This document shows, piece by piece, positions 4,884 to 30,814 of a stretch of 38,996 nt of DNA. The translations under genes were made by a program, and so were the position numbers. The notes under the pieces are model-generated. The model made no database searches. It saw only the letters and a list, made by a program, of their open reading frames with translations, and was not told the origin of the DNA. How positions within the stretch are numbered: the stretch's first letter is position 1; the number at the start of each line of letters is the position of its first letter. Source of the stretch: Thermosipho affectus (GTDB taxonomy: Bacteria > Thermotogota > Thermotogae > Thermotogales > Fervidobacteriaceae); assembly GCF_001990485.1 (NCBI RefSeq), contig NZ_LBFC01000016.1:1-38996 (forward strand), in the 5' to 3' direction.

Positions 4884-5558
4884 TTATTTTACCGGTCCCC
4901 TTTCAATAGATGTAGAAATCATTTCTTCAAACTCTTCTTTTGTTATATGTTGTGGTGTGTAATCTCCTCCTATATTCTTGAGATTTCTGTAAAAAGACCT
5001 CATGTGATTCCTTGAACCTTTCATTAAATTGCTATATACAGCTTTTATATCTTCGTTGTCAGCCTTTTGAATCCAAGATTGAAGATCAGCTATATCAAGG
5101 TCTTCTATTATCATCCCCACTATTAAAGCATCCTTGTAGGATTTTGAACCAATCTCAATAAGTTCATTATAAAGCTCCTGGATTTCTTGATTTACAAATT
5201 TTCCTTCTACATCTTCTTTCACGGGATCATCTATATTGTATTTGTCAAGTAATATCTTTACAGTATCCATATGTGTTTGCTCAGATTTTGATATATTCAA
5301 AAATATCTGTACTTTCCAAAGTTCATAAAGCTTGAAATACACATCTCTTGCAAGTTTTTCTTCCTCTCTCATAATCAAAAGCCCACTTATTTCATCTGAT
5401 GAAAGTGCTTGTTTCGGCATAGAAACAAGCTGATCTTTTACAGAAACAAAATCAAAACCAGCATTCATCCCATTATTTAAAGGCACGTTAGGCCCAGCTG
5501 CCATGAATAAAACCAAAACAATCCCCAAAAATATTACCACACTAAGTTTTTTTAACAT
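4884..5558 (-). CDS. Exported DUF2202 ferritin-like protein
   Basis: A 224-residue protein. The start ATG 5558 is fixed by TAGGAGGTGATAGT just upstream; the longer frame would add 10 residues ahead of the signal peptide. Residues 1-25 (MLKKLSVVIFLGIVLVLFMA) are a classic signal peptide without a lipobox Cys. The mature part matches DUF2202 (PF09968): REEEKLARDVYFKLYELW, then SEQTHMDTVKILLDKY and SRNHMRSFYRNL, which supply Glu and ExxH-type ligands for a ferritin-like four-helix di-metal site. Family members are of unknown function; export suggests a role outside the cytoplasm. The neighbours give no pathway. It reads as intact. Confidence 0.8.
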   Translation of the reverse strand: MLKKLSVVIFLGIVLVLFMAAGPNVPLNNGMNAGFDFVSVKDQLVSMPKQALSSDEISGLLIMREEEKLARDVYFKLYELWKVQIFLNISKSEQTHMDTVKILLDKYNIDDPVKEDVEGKFVNQEIQELYNELIEIGSKSYKDALIVGMIIEDLDIADLQSWIQKADNEDIKAVYSNLMKGSRNHMRSFYRNLKNIGGDYTPQHITKEEFEEMISTSIERGPVK

Positions 5559-5615
5559 ACTATCACCTCCTAGATAAATAATACACAAATAACCTTAAAA
5601 CAATCTTAAAATACC

Positions 5616-7160
5616 CTATTTTATATCAATTTCCAAAATCTCTCCCACTACATACGGATTTTTTTTTGTTCATCAATTGGACGTTTATCTGTTGCTATTA
5701 CATACGAAATTTTTCTTCCAAAATTTAATTTATGCGAAACTTCTTTTACAATATACCCCAAAAGAGTTGTTCCACCTGTTAAGTTAACTACAATACTTCC
5801 AAAGCCTTTCAGAAATTCTTTTGCTTTATCAATTGCACTTTTAAGTTCATCAATCCCCTCAAATGGATCATTTATTAAAATCTTTTCACATTCTCCTCTA
5901 AAATTTGCTTCCTCTTTAATTTCATCTAAAAGCTTTTCACATTCCCTTGAGGTTATTACTACAAGTTTTTCTGCACTGTATTTTTTAACACAGTAAAAAG
6001 TGCTCCTTGCGTTGTACCAAGAGGTGATAGTATAGCTGTCTTTGAAACATTTCTTCTTAGACACTCTTTCATAAAGTTGTTATTTTTAAATTCATCTAAC
6101 GGTGTATCTATCAACTCTTTAACTCTTTCACACAAGGTACTTTTAGAAAATCCAAAATGGGAAACATAATTACGTGCTTTTCTAATACTTTCATCTATAC
6201 AACCTTGAAATTCTCTTGTTTGTGTATCAAAAAATTTATCACTTAAATTTTTTTCATAAAGAACAATATTTATGTAAAATTCCCTTGCAAGTCTTAAGGC
6301 CATACCTATATCTTCTGTTTCATAGTAAAACTTTATAAGTTCTTTTTCAGATTCTAGCTCATCTTTATTTAAAATTACTTTTCCTTTATTTGCGTCAAGT
6401 TTTTCATACCTTTTGCGGTGAAAGTTCAGGGATAAACTCTTCTATCTCATATAAAAATTCCCTATTATTCAAACACTCCACAAGATTGTTTATATTCTTT
6501 TTTAACTCTTCAACTGAACCAAGCCTTAAATAAAAACTAAGTCTTTCTAAATTTTTTCTTAAATCATTTAATTTTTTAATATCTTTTTTAAACTTACCAT
6601 TTTTTGATTTTTCTTCTTTAATTTTTACTTTAATCAAACTTGCTAAACTCTTTGTATAAGCATACTCTTTAAACAACTTTGCCGCATACAACCATTCTGT
6701 AAATTCTAAAACCTCTACTTTATTTAAAGCCCTTGTTTCATCTTTATCTTTATAATATTCCCCATACCAAATTCCTGTAATTTTTGAATTTTTCGCCTCT
6801 TTTAAATACATATCCGCTACAAGTAAAACCATTGGAAACCATCTAAATGCATGGGTAATATCTATTTCAACTTCATCATTTTCATCTATAACCCTTAAAA
6901 TCTCTTTCAAAAAATCTTTTATTGATATTTCTTCTGATATATCAATTACATCATAATGTACGTTCTTTCTCTTCAATTCAGGCTTTGCATGTTTTATCCA
7001 ATTTTCATTACTTTTTGCATCTTTAGTTAAAAAGAAGATGATTTCCAAATTTTTCGAATCTTTTTTTTAATACTCAAAAAGTGCTAATGGAAAAATTCTC
7101 TGTCTTACTTGAACTTTCACTATATCTTCCCGTACCCAAAAATGTTAAAAGTTTTTTCAT
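5616..7160 (-). pseudogene. Decayed CARF-HEPN (TM1812/Csx1-type) type III effector, plus CARF tail
   Basis: Read through its lesions, this is a TM1812-like CRISPR ancillary nuclease. The N-terminus MKKLLTFLGTG starts at ATG 7160, 5 bases after GGGGGA. A CARF core EIIFFLTKDA...EIDITHAFRWFP carries the DxTHxFR hallmark. The HEPN segment has RNYVSH (Rx4H RNase motif). A second CARF-like part reads TAILSPLGTTQG...VVNLTGGTTLLGYIV. Lesions: a frameshift near 7090, a stop at 7067-7069, a frameshift near 6420, a frameshift in an A6 run (5981-5986) and one in an A9 run (5659-5667). Correcting the last gives NPYVVGEILEIDIK and a stop at 5616. Such proteins bind cyclic oligoadenylate and degrade RNA. 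The second CARF may originally have been a separate protein. Five lesions argue against simple sequencing error. Confidence 0.75.
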
Positions 7161-7212: not shown

Positions 7213-7542
7213 TTATTCATACTCTCCTTGCATCTCTTTAAAAATTTTGCTTTTTTCATCATCTCCTGAAATATAATCCATTTTTAATGGTGTAAATGGG
7301 AAATTTTTACAATATGGTGGTTTTCTGTTATATTTTAATATCGAAATCAACTTATTTTTTACAAAATTTAATACAAACATCCTCTCATTTCCTCTTCCAT
7401 CAAACTTTTTTAGCGCGCATAGTAATATATACCATATAGTTTGTTTTAAGTCTTCATATGACTCACATTTATAACCATACCTTTTAAAATACCTCCCTGC
7501 TATCATATCAACCTCTTTTTTATACTTTTCATATACATTCAT
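7213..7542 (-). CDS. Small sigma-70 region-2-like protein
   Basis: 109 residues from ATG 7542, preceded by GGGAGGG. The centre, YEDLKQTIWYILLCALKKFDGR...FVLNFVKNKLISIL, resembles sigma-70 region 2 (the -10 recognition and core-binding helices, typically EDLxQEGxxGLxxAxxxFDxxRG). No region 3 or 4 helix-turn-helix is present. Region-2-only partners exist (RsoA of the Bacillus SigO pair), so a split or auxiliary sigma role is possible but not shown. It follows the three-gene DUF1659/DUF2922 cassette, separated by a terminator and its own conserved upstream element. A partly deleted homologue on the opposite strand is at 10969-11256. Conserved Cys and KPPYC near residue 80 are unexplained. Confidence 0.65.
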   Translation of the reverse strand: MNVYEKYKKEVDMIAGRYFKRYGYKCESYEDLKQTIWYILLCALKKFDGRGNERMFVLNFVKNKLISILKYNRKPPYCKNFPFTPLKMDYISGDDEKSKIFKEMQGEYE

Positions 7543-7580
7543 TAAAAACCCTCCCACAAAAAATTAAGAATATATAAGAA

Positions 7581-7599
7581 TATATACATAAGTATACCA
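7581..7599 (-). promoter_or_regulatory. Conserved upstream element of the sigma-like gene
   Basis: On the minus strand TGGTATACTTATGTATATA lies 38 bases before the sigma-like start. The inverted paralogous cassette has TGGTATACTTATGTGTATA (10892-10910) in the same place, right after the terminator. Conservation of 18 of 19 bases in a decaying non-coding region suggests a promoter or operator; TATACT fits a -10 box. Confidence 0.5.
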
Positions 7600-7607
7600 C
7601 ACATACC

Positions 7608-7637
7608 AAAAAAACAGGAGGGGACATTCCCCTCCTG
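7608..7637 (-). terminator. Rho-independent terminator
   Basis: On the minus strand CAGGAGGGG...CCCCTCCTG forms a 9-bp GC-rich stem with a 5-base loop, followed by seven T. It closes the DUF1659/DUF2922 operon just after the 62-residue gene. An equivalent hairpin is at 10854-10883 in the inverted copy. Confidence 0.9.
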
Positions 7638-7652
7638 CAAAACTTTATTTAA

Positions 7653-7841
7653 TTAAAACATCACATTTGTAAGATAATCTATTGCAGGAGATAAAATCAA
7701 GTGCAGCATTTCCCTTGATATATCAATGTTTAAATCATCGAATATGTTATCAACAAGTTCAATAACTTCTTTCTTTTTGTTTTCTCCATCTCCTGGTCTT
7801 TCTACAAGAATCATAAAAAGTTTAACCACATCCCACAACAT
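7653..7841 (-). CDS. Unknown 62-residue protein of the DUF1659/DUF2922 cassette
   Basis: Starts at ATG 7841 with TAGGTG upstream, overlapping the end region of the DUF2922 gene (13-base gap). It has an N-terminal hydrophobic stretch LWDVVKLFMILV, a charged PGDGENKKKE loop, and an amphipathic helix around ELVDNIFDDLNIDI, ending LILSPAIDYLTNVMF. I do not recognise the family. Its place, third after DUF1659 and DUF2922, is the one held by YvrJ-type small proteins in Firmicutes, but it is not obviously a YvrJ. The C-terminal 46 residues survive fused to DUF2922 in the inverted copy (10685-10839), which supports this being a real gene. Confidence 0.7.
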   Translation of the reverse strand: MLWDVVKLFMILVERPGDGENKKKEVIELVDNIFDDLNIDISREMLHLILSPAIDYLTNVMF

Positions 7842-7854
7842 ATTAATCACCTAC

Positions 7855-8067
7855 TTACTGAATTAAATCAAGAACAACGTTTGTGTTTGTTTCAATAACA
7901 CGTGCTTCATCAAAAACATATCCTGCTGGTACAAGCCCATTGTCTATTAAACTTTGTGCGTCTGTCTCAAGTTCTGCCGAATCAATATTTTCTATTGGTT
8001 CAGGAATGTTAATTCTTAAACTTTTTCCCTCTGTTTGATTTCTAAAAACCAAAGCCAACCTTTTCAT
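7855..8067 (-). CDS. DUF2922 family small protein
   Basis: 70 residues from ATG 8067, with AAGGGGTGATAGG upstream. MKRLALVFRN, KSLRINIPEP and SAELETDAQSLIDNG match DUF2922 (PF11148), a small beta-strand/helix protein usually encoded next to DUF1659. Function is unknown. It is the second gene of the cassette (29-base gap to DUF1659). A near-identical N-terminal copy lies inverted at 10546. Confidence 0.8.
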   Translation of the reverse strand: MKRLALVFRNQTEGKSLRINIPEPIENIDSAELETDAQSLIDNGLVPAGYVFDEARVIETNTNVVLDLIQ

Positions 8068-8107
8068 CCCTATCACCCCTTAATATTTTTTCATTCAAAT
8101 ATCATTA

Positions 8108-8299
8108 TCACTCAACTATCTCATAAGTAACAACCATAGCACTATCTACGGAATAATTTGTGTATTTGTCAATAATCTGGACAATAGCATTTGCCTTAAC
8201 AACATCCACAGTATCCCCAACATTTAATGTTTGTCTTTTAAAAACTGGTTCTCCATTTGCATCTGTGCCTGTAAGATACTTAATAGAAAGCTTTTTCAT
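8108..8299 (-). CDS. DUF1659 family small protein
   Basis: 63 residues from ATG 8299, preceded by TTGGGGGGTATTGAT. KLSIKYLTGTDANGEPVFKR and a following helix-forming VVKANAIVQIIDKY fit DUF1659 (PF07872), the usual neighbour of DUF2922 and YvrJ genes. The fold is probably a small beta sheet plus helix; function is unknown. It is first in the leftward cassette. The inverted copy near 10.5 kb has lost this gene, its place being taken by an interspersed repeat. Confidence 0.75.
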   Translation of the reverse strand: MKKLSIKYLTGTDANGEPVFKRQTLNVGDTVDVVKANAIVQIIDKYTNYSVDSAMVVTYEIVE

Positions 8300-8323: not shown

Positions 8324-8343
8324 TGCACGCTGCCGGCCGCGTA
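8324..8343. other. GC-rich imperfect palindrome upstream of DUF1659
   Basis: GCACGCTGCCGGCCGCGTAC stands out as 16 of 20 G/C in DNA that is otherwise about 70 percent A/T. It contains ACGC...GCGT arms around a CCGGCC core. It lies about 25 bases before the DUF1659 start, so it may be an operator, a 5'-UTR hairpin or a scar of insertion. Confidence 0.45.
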
Positions 8344-8439
8344 CATATAAATATATCTACACAAGAAATTGGATTTAACGTAATATATACAAATGTATAG
8401 AGATTGTTACATAAAAATTTTTGTAGTGTTCTATCAAAT

Positions 8440-10545: not shown

Positions 10546-10839
10546 ATGAAAAGGTTGAGTTTGGTTTATAGAAATCAAACAGAAGGAAAAAGTTTAAGGA
10601 TCAATATCCCAGAACCAATAGACAACATTGATTCTGCTGAATTAGAACAAGACGCACAAAGTTTAATAGACAACGGACTTGTTCCAGCAGGGTACGTATT
10701 TATGGAGAAAATAAAAAGAAAGAAGTAATAAATTTAATAGACGAAATATTTGACGACTTAAACATCAATATTCCAAGAGAAATGCTTTATGTTATTTTAT
10801 CTCCTGCGATAGATTATCTCTCTGGTATTTTATTTTGAT
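10546..10839 (+). pseudogene. DUF2922 copy fused by deletion to the 62-residue gene
   Basis: ATG 10546 is preceded by AAGGAGAGATAAAG. The first 52 codons are nearly identical to the DUF2922 protein at 7855-8067, up to PAGYVF. A deletion then joins it, out of frame, to the cassette's third gene, whose remaining frame reads GENKKKEVINLIDEIFDDLN and IPREMLYVILSPAIDYLSG to TGA 10839. The fused frame ends early as MEKIKRKK (10728), giving a 60-residue product. This is the eroded, inverted paralogue of 7653-8067. A short translated product cannot be excluded, since the ribosome binding site is good. Confidence 0.75.
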
Positions 10840-10853
10840 TAAATAACATTTTG

Positions 10854-10883
10854 CAGGAGGGGATTATCCCCTCCTGTTTTTTT
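10854..10883 (+). terminator. Rho-independent terminator of the inverted cassette
   Basis: CAGGAGGGG...CCCCTCCTG with a 5-base loop and seven T, the same stem as at 7608-7637 on the other strand. Its preservation amid decay supports a real, once-selected element. Confidence 0.9.
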
Positions 10884-10891
10884 GGCACACA

Positions 10892-10910
10892 TGGTATACT
10901 TATGTGTATA
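10892..10910 (+). promoter_or_regulatory. Conserved element upstream of the sigma-like copy
   Basis: TGGTATACTTATGTGTATA matches 18 of 19 bases of the element at 7581-7599. Here it is followed by two looser TATGTATAT / TATGGTATAT repeats up to about 10940. It probably contains the promoter for the sigma-like gene. Confidence 0.45.
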
Positions 10911-10968
10911 TCTATGTATATTAATCTGTATGGTATATGCTTTTCATATTTTACCGGGGGCGTCATGG

Positions 10969-11256
10969 ATGGAGATATATAAGAAATATAAAAAAGACGT
11001 TGAAATGGTAGCGGGAAGATATTTCAAACGATATGGTTATAAATGTGACTCTTATGAAGACTTGAAACAAACCATATGTTATATATTACTATGCGCAATA
11101 GAAAAATTTGATGGATTGATTTCAATCGTAAAATACAACAGGAAACCACCATATTGCAAAGAAACCCCATTTACGCCATTAAAGATGGAATATATCTCGG
11201 GAGATGATGAAAACAACTGTGCATTCAAAGAATTCCAAGGAGAATACATAGTATAA
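10969..11256 (+). CDS. Sigma-region-2-like protein, internally deleted copy
   Basis: 95 residues from ATG 10969, with GGGGG 8 bases upstream. It is a paralogue of the 109-residue protein at 7213-7542: YKKYKKDVEMVAGRYFKRYG and YEDLKQTICYILLCAIEKFD match, as does the tail KPPYC...FTPLKMEYISGDD. An in-frame deletion removes about 15 residues (RGNERMFVLNFVKNK in the other copy), the helix corresponding to the -10-reading part of sigma region 2. It may be non-functional or a dominant-negative variant; neither can be told from sequence. The longer frame starting at 10882 runs through the promoter-like repeats and is unlikely. Confidence 0.6.
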   Translation: MEIYKKYKKDVEMVAGRYFKRYGYKCDSYEDLKQTICYILLCAIEKFDGLISIVKYNRKPPYCKETPFTPLKMEYISGDDENNCAFKEFQGEYIV

Positions 11257-21782: not shown

Positions 21783-22632
21783 GGTTCTGTCAAGAAAATG
21801 CTGTAAAAATACCCCTGTACCCTAAAACAGATTAATAATCCATATCTAACTATCTCCTTTAAAGTAACCATTCTTCGTTAATATTAAGCAAAATTGTTAC
21901 ATTTAATCTTAAAAGTGATCCTTCATTTGGAAAAGCTCCTACTACTTTAGTTTGTCTTTTTAGTTCTTTGTTTATTCTTTCTAACATATTTGTTGTTTTT
22001 ATTCTTCTCCAATATCTTTTTTGATATTTTTGATAATTAAACAAGTCAAATATAAATCTTTCACACACCTTTACTGCTTTTTGTAACCCTTTTCTTTCAA
22101 GTTCTTCGTTAAGAAATTCATTTACTTCTTTGGCTATATTAGAAACTGTTTGCCTTGAAAGTTCTTCTACTCCAAGTGTTGAAATTATTTCTCTTATCTT
22201 TCAAGTCTATACTCCTTGAAGATACGATTCAACAACTGCATTCTTTAACGCCTTTTCTACTCTTGAACATCTTTCAAATACTTTCATTTCAAAAGAAAAT
22301 TCTCTAAATTGTGGTTTTCTTAATTGTAATTTTCCTAATCTTGTGTTCAAGCTTCTTTTCCTATAACCATTGCGATGCGCTCTTCTATTCCTCGTTCTTT
22401 CGTAATGTTCTGCCCCTGCTTGCAAATATGCTTCATATTCCATTACTGTGTTCAAAAACCATGTGAAAAGATTTCTTATTCCCTCTTCATTTTCTGTAAG
22501 AAATTGTAGTATAATATCTTTGATTTCCATGGCCCTGTATCCCTCCTTTGTAATAAGTTTTCTCACTTATCTATTTTAGAATACAGGACCTTTTTTGTTT
22601 TTATAGCTTTTATTTTACACTGCCATCCAATC
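21775..22632. mobile_element. Defective IS256-family element with target duplication
   Basis: The element spans 21783-22624 (842 bp, against about 1.3 kb for a full IS256). Imperfect terminal inverted repeats are GGTTCTGTCAAGAAAATGCT on the left and, reversed, GGCAGTGTAAAATAAAAGCT on the right, with about 18 of 27 bases matching. It is flanked by ATCCAATA (21775-21782) and ATCCAATC (22625-22632), an 8-bp duplication with one change. The transposase inside lacks its catalytic centre, so the copy cannot move itself. Confidence 0.8.
21859..22530 (-). pseudogene. IS256-family transposase, internally deleted
   Basis: The N-terminal piece (ATG 22530 to 22207) has LFTWFLNTVMEYEAYLQAGA, RAHRNGYRKRSLNTRLGKLQ and VFERCSRVEKAL, the mutator/IS256 N-terminus. 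After stops at 22207 and 22201, the same frame continues IREIISTLGVEELSRQTVSN to about 22085. The C-terminal piece (to 21859) reads RRIKTTNMLERINKELKRQT and GAFPNEGSLLRL. The segment in between, which carries the DDE catalytic residues, is deleted. Confidence 0.85.
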
Positions 22633-23057
22633 TATTACATAATCTTTTTCTATAACTATTTTCGTTGAAAATTCTGGTAAATACCTTTGTATCATGTTAA
22701 AAGATTAAAAATCTCTTACAGATACATAATCGGCTTTTTAACAATTTTCTTAAAGAGTATTCTATTTCACTCTATAATAAGTTTATCTGATAATAAAAGA
22801 TTCAAAAAAAGCAAAAAAATTTTTTTACTAAAAGAAGCAACTTTGTGAATCTTTGATGTTTGATGTGGATTATTGCTTAAAACAAAGAAAATTTTTTCGT
22901 TACGATGTTTCTGAATGAGAGAATGCAAAATAAATTCATCACCAATATTATCATAACCAAAATAACCTACCACGGTTATTTTGGTTTTATTAAAAAACAA
23001 TTTGACTTTTTTGCTAATTAAATTAATTGAATTTTTTACAAACGATATGCAACACAT
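22625..23057 (-). pseudogene. N-terminal part of CsaB-like pyruvyltransferase, split by IS256
   Basis: From ATG 23057 (AGGGGAG upstream) the frame gives KITVVGYFGYDNIGDEFILH, the glycine-rich GYxGxxNxGDE start of CsaB/pyruvyltransferase proteins, and stops after LLSDKLIIE at 22767. In another frame the conserved region continues as ADYVSVRDF, a stop, SFNMIQRYLPEFSTKIVIEK, DYVIDWM up to the IS256 end. Joined with 21368-21782 it makes one decayed gene. It probably once modified the same glycan with pyruvate; an intact pyruvyltransferase remains at 14300. Confidence 0.72.
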
Positions 23058-28373: not shown

Positions 28374-29564
28374 CTATTCAATTACTTCATATATATAATT
28401 TCTAAATTTATTTTCAATTTTTTTCCAGGTATAATTTTCTTTTATGTAATTTCTAGCATTTTTACCTATTTCCAATCTTAGGGTTTTATTTTTTAGCAAG
28501 GAATTTATAGCCTTTGCAAATTCTTCCGAAGAATCAACAGCAAAAATATCCTGAAAATTTTTAATATTTTCAAAAGGTTTAATACGTTCCTTAAAGGTCA
28601 CAACTGGTTTTCCAAGCGCCATTCCTTCTAAAATTTTATTTTGAATTCCTGCGCCTGTTCGAATAGGGGCAATTACTATTTTAGATTTAGCCATTAACTC
28701 ATAAGGATTTTCTATATAACCAGTCACAAAAACATTAGAATACTTTTTTTGTAAATTCAAAACTGCTTTATTAGGATTCGTTCCAATAATATATAATTTT
28801 ACATCATGATTAATTTCCGGAAGAATTTCTTTTGTAAAATAAACAACAGCATCTACATTTGGTAAATAATCCATTTTTCCAATAAAAGTAATTATATCTT
28901 CATCAGACTCATCATTTTTCATTCCTAATAGTGATTGTGAGACTCCCATAGGGATAATTTTTATTTTATTACCATCCGGTTCTATGAAATACTTATCGAC
29001 AACAGATGTGATAAATGCCATTTTATAATTGTTTAGAATTTTTTTTTCGTATTTCAAAAGCCTTTTACCTTCTATTTTGTAAATTGATTTCCAAAGAAAA
29101 TTACTAATTTTATTATTTCCACTCAAATAATGATAAGCTAAAGAATCGTGATAATCTATCAAATGGATCGCAAAATCATTAAAAATATATTTTCTATACT
29201 CATGTGCTCTAATATGATTCCATAAAATTAAGTTGTAATGGTTCTTAGAAATTATTTCAGATAATTTTCGAGCAATTCTATCTGAATAATATAGATGACT
29301 TTGCAAAGGTTCATTTTTAAAAACAGCTTTTGACATTCCGAAAATTTTTTGAAAATTGGTTAAATAAAACGGAAATATGTTATCATATAACTTTCTTACT
29401 TTTTTAATTAGTTGATTATTTAAACTATCACTATGAAGAAATGAAAGATCTACTTGAAACTCCATATTTGAAAGAAATTCTGAAAACTTTAGTATTCTTT
29501 TCTTGAAACCGGCAGTTGGTGGATAAGGTAATCTCGTTGAAAATATCAATACTTTTTTTTTCAC
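28374..29564 (-). CDS. GT4-like glycosyltransferase
   Basis: 396 residues, GT-B fold. VLIFSTRLPYPPTAGFKKRI at the N-terminus, IDYHDSLAYHYLS in the middle, and a C-terminal nucleotide-sugar site IVIAPIRTGAGIQNKILEGM then ALGKPVVTF are typical of GT4 enzymes of the sugar-transferase PEP-CTERM/EpsH-associated type. The GTG start at 29564 overlaps the last base of the upstream sugar transferase stop. It probably adds the second sugar after the priming step. Donor not readable. Confidence 0.83.
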   Translation of the reverse strand: MKKKVLIFSTRLPYPPTAGFKKRILKFSEFLSNMEFQVDLSFLHSDSLNNQLIKKVRKLYDNIFPFYLTNFQKIFGMSKAVFKNEPLQSHLYYSDRIARKLSEIISKNHYNLILWNHIRAHEYRKYIFNDFAIHLIDYHDSLAYHYLSGNNKISNFLWKSIYKIEGKRLLKYEKKILNNYKMAFITSVVDKYFIEPDGNKIKIIPMGVSQSLLGMKNDESDEDIITFIGKMDYLPNVDAVVYFTKEILPEINHDVKLYIIGTNPNKAVLNLQKKYSNVFVTGYIENPYELMAKSKIVIAPIRTGAGIQNKILEGMALGKPVVTFKERIKPFENIKNFQDIFAVDSSEEFAKAINSLLKNKTLRLEIGKNARNYIKENYTWKKIENKFRNYIYEVIE

Positions 29565-30814
29565 TACTTCGCTCCCCTCTTCCAGAAAATAACTTCGAGT
29601 GTTTGAAGTATTATCTTTAAATCAAGGAATATGTTTCTATTTTTTACATACCATAAGTCATAGCTAAGCTTTTTTTTCACTTCGTTTAAATCGGATGCAT
29701 ATTTATACATTATCTGCGCCCAACCTGTAAGGCCTGGTTTTACATTGTGTCTTTGAGAATAAAATTCTATTTCTTTTTCAAATTGCCTGACAAATGGTAT
29801 TTGTTCTGGTCTTGGCCCTACAATGCTCATATCTCCTTTTAGGATGTTTATAAACTGCAAAGATTCATCTATCCGCACAGGCCTTATTAACCTACCTATT
29901 TTCAAAATCCTATCTTCCTCCTGATCTGCAAATTTTGCTTTATCTTCTTTATGTTTTTTCATGCTTCTAAACTTTACAAGCATAAAATGCTTATTATCCT
30001 TCCCTACCCTCAATTGTTTAAATATAACTGGCCTTCCGTCTTCTATAAGTATGGCAATTGCCGTTATAAGCATAAACGGGGAAAATATAACTAGCCCTAT
30101 TATTGAACCAAATATATCGAGTATTCTTTTTGCAGGTGATTCTTTTGTATTTTGAAAAGCTATTTCATAATAATCTTTGAACTTTATTGCAACTTCTATT
30201 GGAATTCTTTTTAGTATTTTTTCAACAAGATTTGGAAGATATTCTATTTCGTATTTTTCCTTTAGCTCGTTTAACTGATTTTTTACGTATTTTTCTAGTT
30301 CCTGGTCAGCAACTAATACAGCATCATATTGTGCAATTTTACTTTTAAGCACTGCTGGAGATGGATTTAAAAACTCAGAAAAAACAACTTTTCCTTGTGT
30401 TTTTTTCTCAATCTCCTGTAGAATATCTTTTAATTCATCTTTTCTCCCTATTACAAGGTATCTTTTCTGAGAAGTATTTTTTATTAATATTAGATATTCT
30501 ATTTTATGCAATATCGGAATAGTTAAAAGTAAGATTATAAGGTTATAGATGAAAAACCAACGGTTTAATATTTTATCCATTAATGGATAAAATATTAATA
30601 TTCCAATAAATCCTATTACTATCCCTGCAAAAACCCTTATCAATTGTTCGTTGTAATCTTTTAGATAATCATAATCATAAACCCTAAAGGCATATATTCC
30701 CATCCATATTATAACAGAAAGGAAAACAGAAGAAAACACAGAAGAAGTTAAAAAGTAGTTAAAAACCATTATTAAGAAAAGGTCTATTAAAATTATTATT
30801 CTTGAAAAATTCAC
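29564..30814 (-). CDS. Polyprenyl glycosylphosphotransferase (priming sugar transferase)
   Basis: 416 residues. Four hydrophobic helices lie in the first ~110 residues, then a CoA-binding-like region (YLVIGRKDELKDILQEIEKK), then the catalytic bacterial sugar transferase domain (PF02397) from about 225: KRILDIFGSIIGLVIFSPF, LVKFRSMKK, RIDESLQFINILKGDMSIVG, PRPEQ, and VKPGLTGWAQIM. It transfers a sugar-1-phosphate to undecaprenyl phosphate and starts repeat-unit assembly at the membrane. GGAGGAATTGAG precedes GTG 30814. It is the first gene of the polysaccharide operon, with a promoter candidate about 40 bases upstream. Confidence 0.92.
   Translation of the reverse strand: MNFSRIIILIDLFLIMVFNYFLTSSVFSSVFLSVIIWMGIYAFRVYDYDYLKDYNEQLIRVFAGIVIGFIGILIFYPLMDKILNRWFFIYNLIILLLTIPILHKIEYLILIKNTSQKRYLVIGRKDELKDILQEIEKKTQGKVVFSEFLNPSPAVLKSKIAQYDAVLVADQELEKYVKNQLNELKEKYEIEYLPNLVEKILKRIPIEVAIKFKDYYEIAFQNTKESPAKRILDIFGSIIGLVIFSPFMLITAIAILIEDGRPVIFKQLRVGKDNKHFMLVKFRSMKKHKEDKAKFADQEEDRILKIGRLIRPVRIDESLQFINILKGDMSIVGPRPEQIPFVRQFEKEIEFYSQRHNVKPGLTGWAQIMYKYASDLNEVKKKLSYDLWYVKNRNIFLDLKIILQTLEVIFWKRGAK

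What the first reader, a model, noticed from the sequence alone, without database searches (positions are those of the whole stretch)
7213..8299. Small-gene cassette: DUF1659, DUF2922, unknown 62-residue protein, terminator, sigma-region-2-like protein
Four short genes of unknown function are arranged with excellent ribosome binding sites, an internal strong terminator and a separate conserved promoter-like element for the last gene. The sigma region 2-only protein recalls split sigma systems such as SigO/RsoA, whose Bacillus neighbourhood also contains yvrJ. The cassette exists twice here. It may be an undescribed regulatory or mobile unit.
Basis: partly seen in the sequence, partly recalled or inferred. 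Interest (0 to 1): 0.66.

Follow-up and report, generated by a model that had tools for sequence, protein, structure and literature searches.

The report
Polysaccharide-linked cassette with sigma-like protein
Nearly every heat-loving Thermotogae genome examined carries a set of four tiny genes, usually beside its surface-polysaccharide genes; the last gene encodes a stripped-down promoter-recognition (sigma-like) protein, and the set has its own unusual promoter, so it looks like an undescribed regulatory unit.

Summary
The four genes are real, on the minus strand: DUF1659 (8108-8299), DUF2922 (7855-8067), a 62-residue protein (7653-7841) and a 109-residue protein (7213-7542), with a terminator and a promoter-like element before the last. 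The second copy (10546-11247) is a decayed remnant. In 61 related genomes DUF2922 occurs in 53, DUF1659 in 44 and the 109-residue family in 44, mostly in this order. The 109-residue family is sigma-70 region 2: Pfam in 28 of 30 members, invariant D of the DLxQ motif, AlphaFold three-helix model, dN/dS about 0.1. Region 4 is absent from the window's order; at least one outer-family member keeps a C-terminal helix-turn-helix. DUF1659 and DUF2922 are homologous to each other. The 62-residue protein resembles holin tails weakly; it is not YvrJ. A sugar transferase of the exopolysaccharide locus lies within 50 kb of a cassette part in 28 of 31 testable genomes, within 5 kb in 17. Cassette promoters share a -10-type block, mostly without a conserved -35, followed at the predicted start by a GC-rich palindrome whose sequence changes while its symmetry stays. 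Best reading: an undescribed cassette with a region-2-only sigma-like factor that probably drives its own promoters. Function is inferred.

The parts
8386..8400 (-). E1 element CTATACATTTGTATA upstream of the cassette
   Evidence: same type of element upstream of cassettes and stand-alone sigma-like genes of relatives
8344..8360 (-). E3 element GTAGATATATTTATATG, -10-type block of the cassette promoter
   Evidence: GTAGATA invariant in 10 non-redundant family members; only genome site of its longer form
8327..8342 (-). GC-rich palindrome ACGCGGCCGGCAGCGT (one mismatched pair) at the predicted transcription start
   Evidence: symmetry conserved across the class, sequence variable
8108..8299 (-). 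DUF1659 protein, 63 aa
   Evidence: Pfam PF07872 E 1.9e-8; homologous to DUF2922
7855..8067 (-). DUF2922 protein, 70 aa, predicted beta-beta-alpha-beta fold
   Evidence: Pfam PF11148 E 1.2e-11; AlphaFold pLDDT 84
7653..7841 (-). 62-residue protein X with ERPGDGxxKKxEV motif, weakly holin-like
   Evidence: PHROG 6918 holin in 12 of 21 family members, best E 8.5e-5
7614..7638 (-). intrinsic terminator between X and the sigma-like gene
   Evidence: conserved in copy 2
7581..7598 (-). E1-type promoter element of the sigma-like gene (TGGTATACT, extended -10-like)
7213..7542 (-). 109-residue sigma-70 region-2-only protein
   Evidence: dN/dS 0.11-0.14 against close relatives
10546..10835 (+). remnant of a second cassette: truncated DUF2922 and frame-shifted X
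10853..10877 (+). terminator of the remnant copy
10893..10910 (+). E1-type element of the remnant copy
10969..11247 (+). second sigma-like gene with an internal deletion of about 15 residues
   Evidence: 80% identity to copy 1; alignment
29564..30814 (-). PF02397 sugar transferase; reading by eye, the minus-strand genes from about 11.7 to 30.8 kb form its polysaccharide cluster, the usual neighbour of the cassette
   Evidence: PF02397 confirmed here and in relatives

Best explanation
This is a conserved cassette of the Thermotogae that accompanies the exopolysaccharide (EPS) locus. Its last gene encodes a minimal sigma-like factor made of region 2 only. Proposed mechanism: this protein docks by its DLxQ helix on the beta-prime clamp helices of core RNA polymerase and directs it, without -35 contacts, to promoters with a long -10 block (GTATACATnCGTATACTATATnnTGG, or in the window's family GTAGATATATnTATnTG) that start at a GC palindrome. 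These promoters lie before the cassette itself and before split-off parts of it, so the factor would be autoregulatory. The outputs are two homologous small beta-rich proteins (DUF1659/DUF2922) and a weakly holin-like protein, which I infer act in assembly or release of the surface polysaccharide. Shown: gene set, order, conservation, fold, promoter block, EPS linkage. Inferred: polymerase binding, promoter recognition, the role in EPS.
For: Co-occurrence and order. Region-2 identity: 28 of 30 members, PDB profile hits are sigma factors with FliA best at 6e-8, PHROG sigma families, AlphaFold pLDDT 85 with three long helices, sigma region 2 prominent among PDB fold matches. D31 invariant; L32, Q34, T35 nearly so. 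dN/dS 0.03-0.14. Promoter consensus without conserved -35 in 18 non-redundant E1-type promoters; the same block and nearly the same palindrome precede the split DUF pair and the split X-sigma pair in one genome (G028, G030). EPS linkage. Horizontal transfer of cassette with EPS cluster.
Against: Foldseek E-values are not significant (best 0.67), as expected for three helices but still weak. The E1/E3 elements were not found before the EPS operons in the loci examined, so direct control of EPS by this factor is not supported; where the cassette precedes EPS genes in the same direction, read-through is possible. The window family's E3 promoter has a partly conserved GTTAA about 17 bp upstream of GATATA, so the housekeeping sigma factor may use it. 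The holin match is weak. Some genomes (G024, G039, G056) have cassette and sugar transferase far apart.
Confidence: 0.42

Rival explanations
1. Split sigma factor: the region-2-only protein works with a partner that replaces region 4, most simply X, as T4 gp55 does with gp33 or RsoA with SigO.
For: X and the sigma-like gene overlap or adjoin in many genomes and stay together when the cassette splits (G028, G030, G032, G034). The literature describes gp55 plus gp33 as a split sigma (PMC2988020) and SigO-RsoA likewise (PMC8103513).
Against: In genus g3 the sigma-like gene stands alone and X stays with the DUF pair. X resembles holin tails, not region 4. E1-type promoters show no conserved -35.
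Confidence: 0.17
2. Not an initiation factor: the region-2 protein sits on the clamp helices as an anti-sigma or elongation regulator, like specialised NusG paralogues of polysaccharide operons (recalled from general knowledge).
For: It is linked to EPS loci and the EPS operons lack the E1/E3 promoter; clamp helices are also the NusG site (general knowledge).
Against: Region 2.3/2.4-like segments are kept in the family and the cassette has its own unusual promoter block.
Confidence: 0.18
3. A domesticated phage lysis or late-gene module: late sigma factor, holin, and in Thermotoga-like genomes an adjacent glucosaminidase, now used for release of surface material, like the sigma/holin pairs of clostridia.
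For: Holin PHROG in 12 of 21 X proteins, phage sigma PHROGs, glucosaminidase next to the cassette in L110 and by sequence in L107 and L130; holin-mediated non-lytic secretion is known (PMC9527704).
Against: No relative of the sigma-like protein in phage or plasmid records, none of X in viral contigs; the holin match is weak; the glucosaminidase is confined to a few genera.
Confidence: 0.15

Closest known systems
SigO-RsoA of Bacillus subtilis
   Same: Region 2 and region 4 on separate proteins; the region-2 protein is very small; it transcribes its own operon (PMC8103513).
   Different: No region-4 partner seen here; X is not YvrJ; DUF1659/DUF2922 rang only in T. maritima among the control genomes.
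Phage T4 gp55 (late sigma factor)
   Same: Small region-2-only sigma that docks on the beta-prime coiled coil (PMC2988020); from general knowledge its promoters are -10 only.
   Different: Cellular, EPS-linked and kept across a bacterial class; no gp33 or clamp partner known.
Group V sigma/holin pairs (TcdR/TcdE, UviA/UviB)
   Same: Divergent sigma-like factor next to a holin-like gene.
   Different: Those keep somewhat recognisable region 4; here no toxin, and the holin likeness is weak.
Pfam DUF1659 (PF07872) and DUF2922 (PF11148)
   Same: The first two genes are members over the cut-offs; also paired in Petroclostridium (L133).
   Different: No function known; in L133 they stand alone without X or a sigma-like gene.

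Membership tests
Sigma-70 family (region 2) | sequence match to Sigma70_r2 | tested here: met
   28 of 30 family members, best E 9e-9; the window protein alone is just under cut-off
Sigma-70 family (region 2) | three-helix region 2 fold | tested here: met
   AlphaFold pLDDT 85; sigma region 2 prominent among PDB matches, TM 0.48-0.64 for SigE NTD, E-values weak
Sigma-70 family (region 2) | DLxQ clamp-helix motif of region 2.2 | tested here: met
   D31 invariant, L32 and Q34 at least 90%
Sigma-70 family (full factor) | region 4 helix-turn-helix | tested here: not met
   absent in the window's order; HTH significant in one outer member (L122) and suggested by eye in L117 and L119
Sigma-70 family (full factor) | binds core polymerase and initiates | not testable with these tools
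   needs biochemistry
SigO-RsoA split sigma | cognate region-4 protein encoded nearby | tested here: not met
   none seen in the cassette loci examined; the whole genome was not searched for one
SigO-RsoA split sigma | YvrJ neighbour | tested here: not met
   X and its relatives do not match YvrJ in Pfam
Holin (Holin_LLH) | family match over the cut-off | tested here: not met
   Pfam best E 0.013, window protein 0.037, in 8 of 21 members; window protein 14.9 bits against cut-off 24.9; PHROG holin 8.5e-5 at best
Holin (Holin_LLH) | transmembrane segment | not tested
   by eye only a short hydrophobic N-terminal helix
DUF1659 / DUF2922 | Pfam cut-off | tested here: met
   34.5 and 44.8 bits
Self-mobile element | own transposase or integrase and defined ends | tested here: not met
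   none recurs in cassette neighbourhoods

The most novel reading that the evidence does not exclude
The Thermotogae have an uncounted sigma factor, consisting of region 2 only, that uses -35-less promoters defined by a long -10 block and a start-site palindrome selected for symmetry rather than sequence; the same promoter-palindrome block has spread as dozens of intergenic elements in one genus (g6), forming a non-coding regulon.
Probability: 0.25. Interest if true: 0.82.

Novelty: new variant of a known kind. Interest (0 to 1): 0.63.

Why it matters
Thermotoga maritima is described as having four sigma factors, and no promoter motif was found for the three alternative ones (PMC3636130). A conserved region-2-only protein with a ready-made candidate promoter would add a fifth factor that can be tested at once, would be a cellular counterpart of T4 gp55, and gives a first context (surface polysaccharide) for DUF1659 and DUF2922, for which the paper library holds no functional work.

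Tried and rejected
RNA hairpin reading of the palindrome: left as unproven, because centres are self-complementary and G-U against A-C mismatches are 9:6, p 0.6; an earlier count by eye favoured G-U and did not survive. DUF2922 fold match: nothing significant in the PDB. Rfam: no family at the g6 elements. Standard promoter scan: 19 sites against 25 expected, uninformative. Control of EPS operons by the same promoter: E1/E3 not found before EPS genes. Intergenic g6 elements as promoters of neighbouring genes: orientation looks random.

Full report
OBSERVATION. The window (28% G+C) belongs to a genome of the Thermotogae; one relative's DUF2922 (G050) matches Marinitoga lauensis at 84%. On the minus strand lie DUF1659 (8108-8299), DUF2922 (7855-8067), a 62-residue protein here called X (7653-7841) and a 109-residue protein (7213-7542). 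A terminator (7638-7614, 11 pairs then a T run) separates X from the last gene, which has its own promoter-like element. The plus-strand copy at 10546-11247 is a remnant: no DUF1659, DUF2922 cut at residue 49, X frame-shifted, about 15 residues missing inside the last gene. Its remaining codons still give dN/dS 0.13 against copy 1, so decay is probably recent.

DISTRIBUTION. In 61 genomes of the class the 109-residue family is found in 44 with a single-sequence query, DUF2922 in 53, DUF1659 in 44. Gene-order tables show DUF1659, DUF2922, X and sigma-like gene in this order in most genomes of several families. In genus g3 the sigma-like gene stands alone; in g10 and g11 the unit is often split into DUF1659-DUF2922 and X-sigma. 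In Petroclostridium (L133) only the DUF pair is present, beside the ATP synthase genes by reading.

THE SIGMA-LIKE PROTEIN. Pfam Sigma70_r2 matches 28 of 30 members; a profile finds sigma factors in the PDB, FliA best at 6e-8; two PHROG sigma families match 14 and 5 members. AlphaFold gives three long helices, pLDDT 85; sigma region 2 is prominent among the PDB fold matches, though E-values are poor. D31 is invariant and L32, Q34 nearly so, the DLxQ motif of region 2.2, which in sigma-70 contacts the clamp helices (general knowledge). The proteins of the window's order stop about 35 residues after region 2 with a conserved P..C...PFT segment. L122 of an outer family has a significant C-terminal helix-turn-helix (HTH_28, E 2.4e-6; Sigma70_r4, 1e-4); L117 and L119 have similar tails by eye. 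Loss of region 4 in the window's order is therefore the simplest history. dN/dS is 0.03-0.14.

THE OTHER PROTEINS. DUF1659 and DUF2922 profiles match each other (probability 95.6%, E 1.2e-8), so the pair probably arose by duplication. DUF2922 is predicted as beta-beta-alpha-beta, pLDDT 84, without a significant PDB match. X has an invariant G..K core and a nearly invariant second K, and matches a holin PHROG in 12 of 21 members (best 8.5e-5) and Holin_LLH in 8 of 21 weakly.

POLYSACCHARIDE LINK. Clustering of neighbours finds glycosyltransferase, sugar transferase, flippase and polysaccharide export families as the commonest neighbours. Comparing positions by hand, a PF02397 sugar transferase lies on the same contig within 50 kb of a cassette part in 28 of 31 genomes where this can be judged, and within about 5 kb in 17, in four families. 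Exceptions are G024 (82 kb), G039 (235 kb) and G056. In G003 two cassettes in opposite orientation bracket a polysaccharide cluster of about 14 genes; in G027 a decayed cassette at the far end of the cluster is closest, in all four genes, to genus g6 and not to its own genus. Cassettes thus move with polysaccharide clusters.

PROMOTER. Upstream of DUF1659 (or X), 18 non-redundant promoters of other genera share GTATACATnCGTATACTATATnnTGG with no conserved position further upstream; ten of the window's family share GTAGATAYAT..TAT.TG with a weaker GTTAA 17 bp before it. GTAGATAYAT occurs in the examined loci almost only before DUF1659 or the sigma-like gene. Directly after the block comes a GC-rich palindrome: 20 of 47 promoters have a perfect 12-mer, against a mean of 0.03 and a maximum of 1 in 100 Markov-resampled sets. 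Sequences differ (GGGAGCGCTCCC, GCCTGCGCAGGC, GACAGCGCTGTC, GGAAGGCCTTCC, GAGCCGGCTC) but in the palindromes found the central four bases are self-complementary (partly a consequence of how they were picked). In T. maritima starts lie 7 bp after the -10 box (PMC3636130), which puts the start at the palindrome. In G028 and G030 the separated DUF pair and X-sigma pair carry the same block and nearly the same palindrome, which argues for a shared trans-acting factor.

DISPERSED ELEMENTS. In genus g6 the same block occurs away from the cassette: 24 matches in G022 with at most one mismatch against 3 for the reversed pattern. Most are intergenic elements of about 80-190 bp with varying palindromes and no following gene. 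Their nature is open.

MECHANISM. The most likely reading is a region-2-only sigma-like factor that recognises an extended -10 block and drives its own cassette. Conservation of promoter, fold and co-occurrence is shown; binding and recognition are inferred. The link to polysaccharide is shown as gene neighbourhood only; the E1/E3 promoter was not seen before EPS operons. Rivals are a split sigma with X as partner, an elongation or anti-sigma role, and a domesticated phage module.

LITERATURE. No paper in the library treats DUF2922, and DUF1659 appears once in passing. T. maritima is described as having four sigma factors. The library is open-access only, so absence there is not proof.

LIMITS. 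Distances to PF02397 were read by hand. Trees were not built, so losses are not dated.

Noticed in passing
L178-L210 (G022, G024, G030, G020): Dispersed intergenic elements of about 80-190 bp that carry the cassette promoter block, then two or more palindromes differing from copy to copy, many ending in CATAGGTCTAATCTTTTGG; no Rfam family.
   Followed up: partly
L130:17905-18736 (G027): Decayed cassette at the far end of a polysaccharide cluster whose four genes are closest to another genus (g6): horizontal transfer of cassette plus cluster.
   Followed up: yes
L093 (G001:C16): A second, different DUF1659-DUF2922 pair close to the Marinitoga type (84% to G050), followed by a 70-residue hydrophobic/coiled-coil protein instead of X.
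   Followed up: partly
L100 (G005:C1:330000-349000): Several fragmentary sigma-like genes spread through one genome's polysaccharide region.
   Followed up: no
window 5648-7048: Small proteins with weak CARF-like (Card1 E 0.0021) similarity downstream of the cassette, frames apparently broken; a type III CRISPR Cmr cluster lies at about 31-38 kb (Cmr2 and a RAMP protein confirmed).
   Followed up: partly
window 4887-5588: DUF2202 protein (E 1.4e-64).
   Followed up: no
window 22207-23057: Fragments that look like a transposase, inside the polysaccharide cluster (by eye).
   Followed up: no
L133:5719-6219 (Petroclostridium sp. X23): DUF1659-DUF2922 pair beside ATP synthase genes, without X or a sigma-like gene.
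   Followed up: partly
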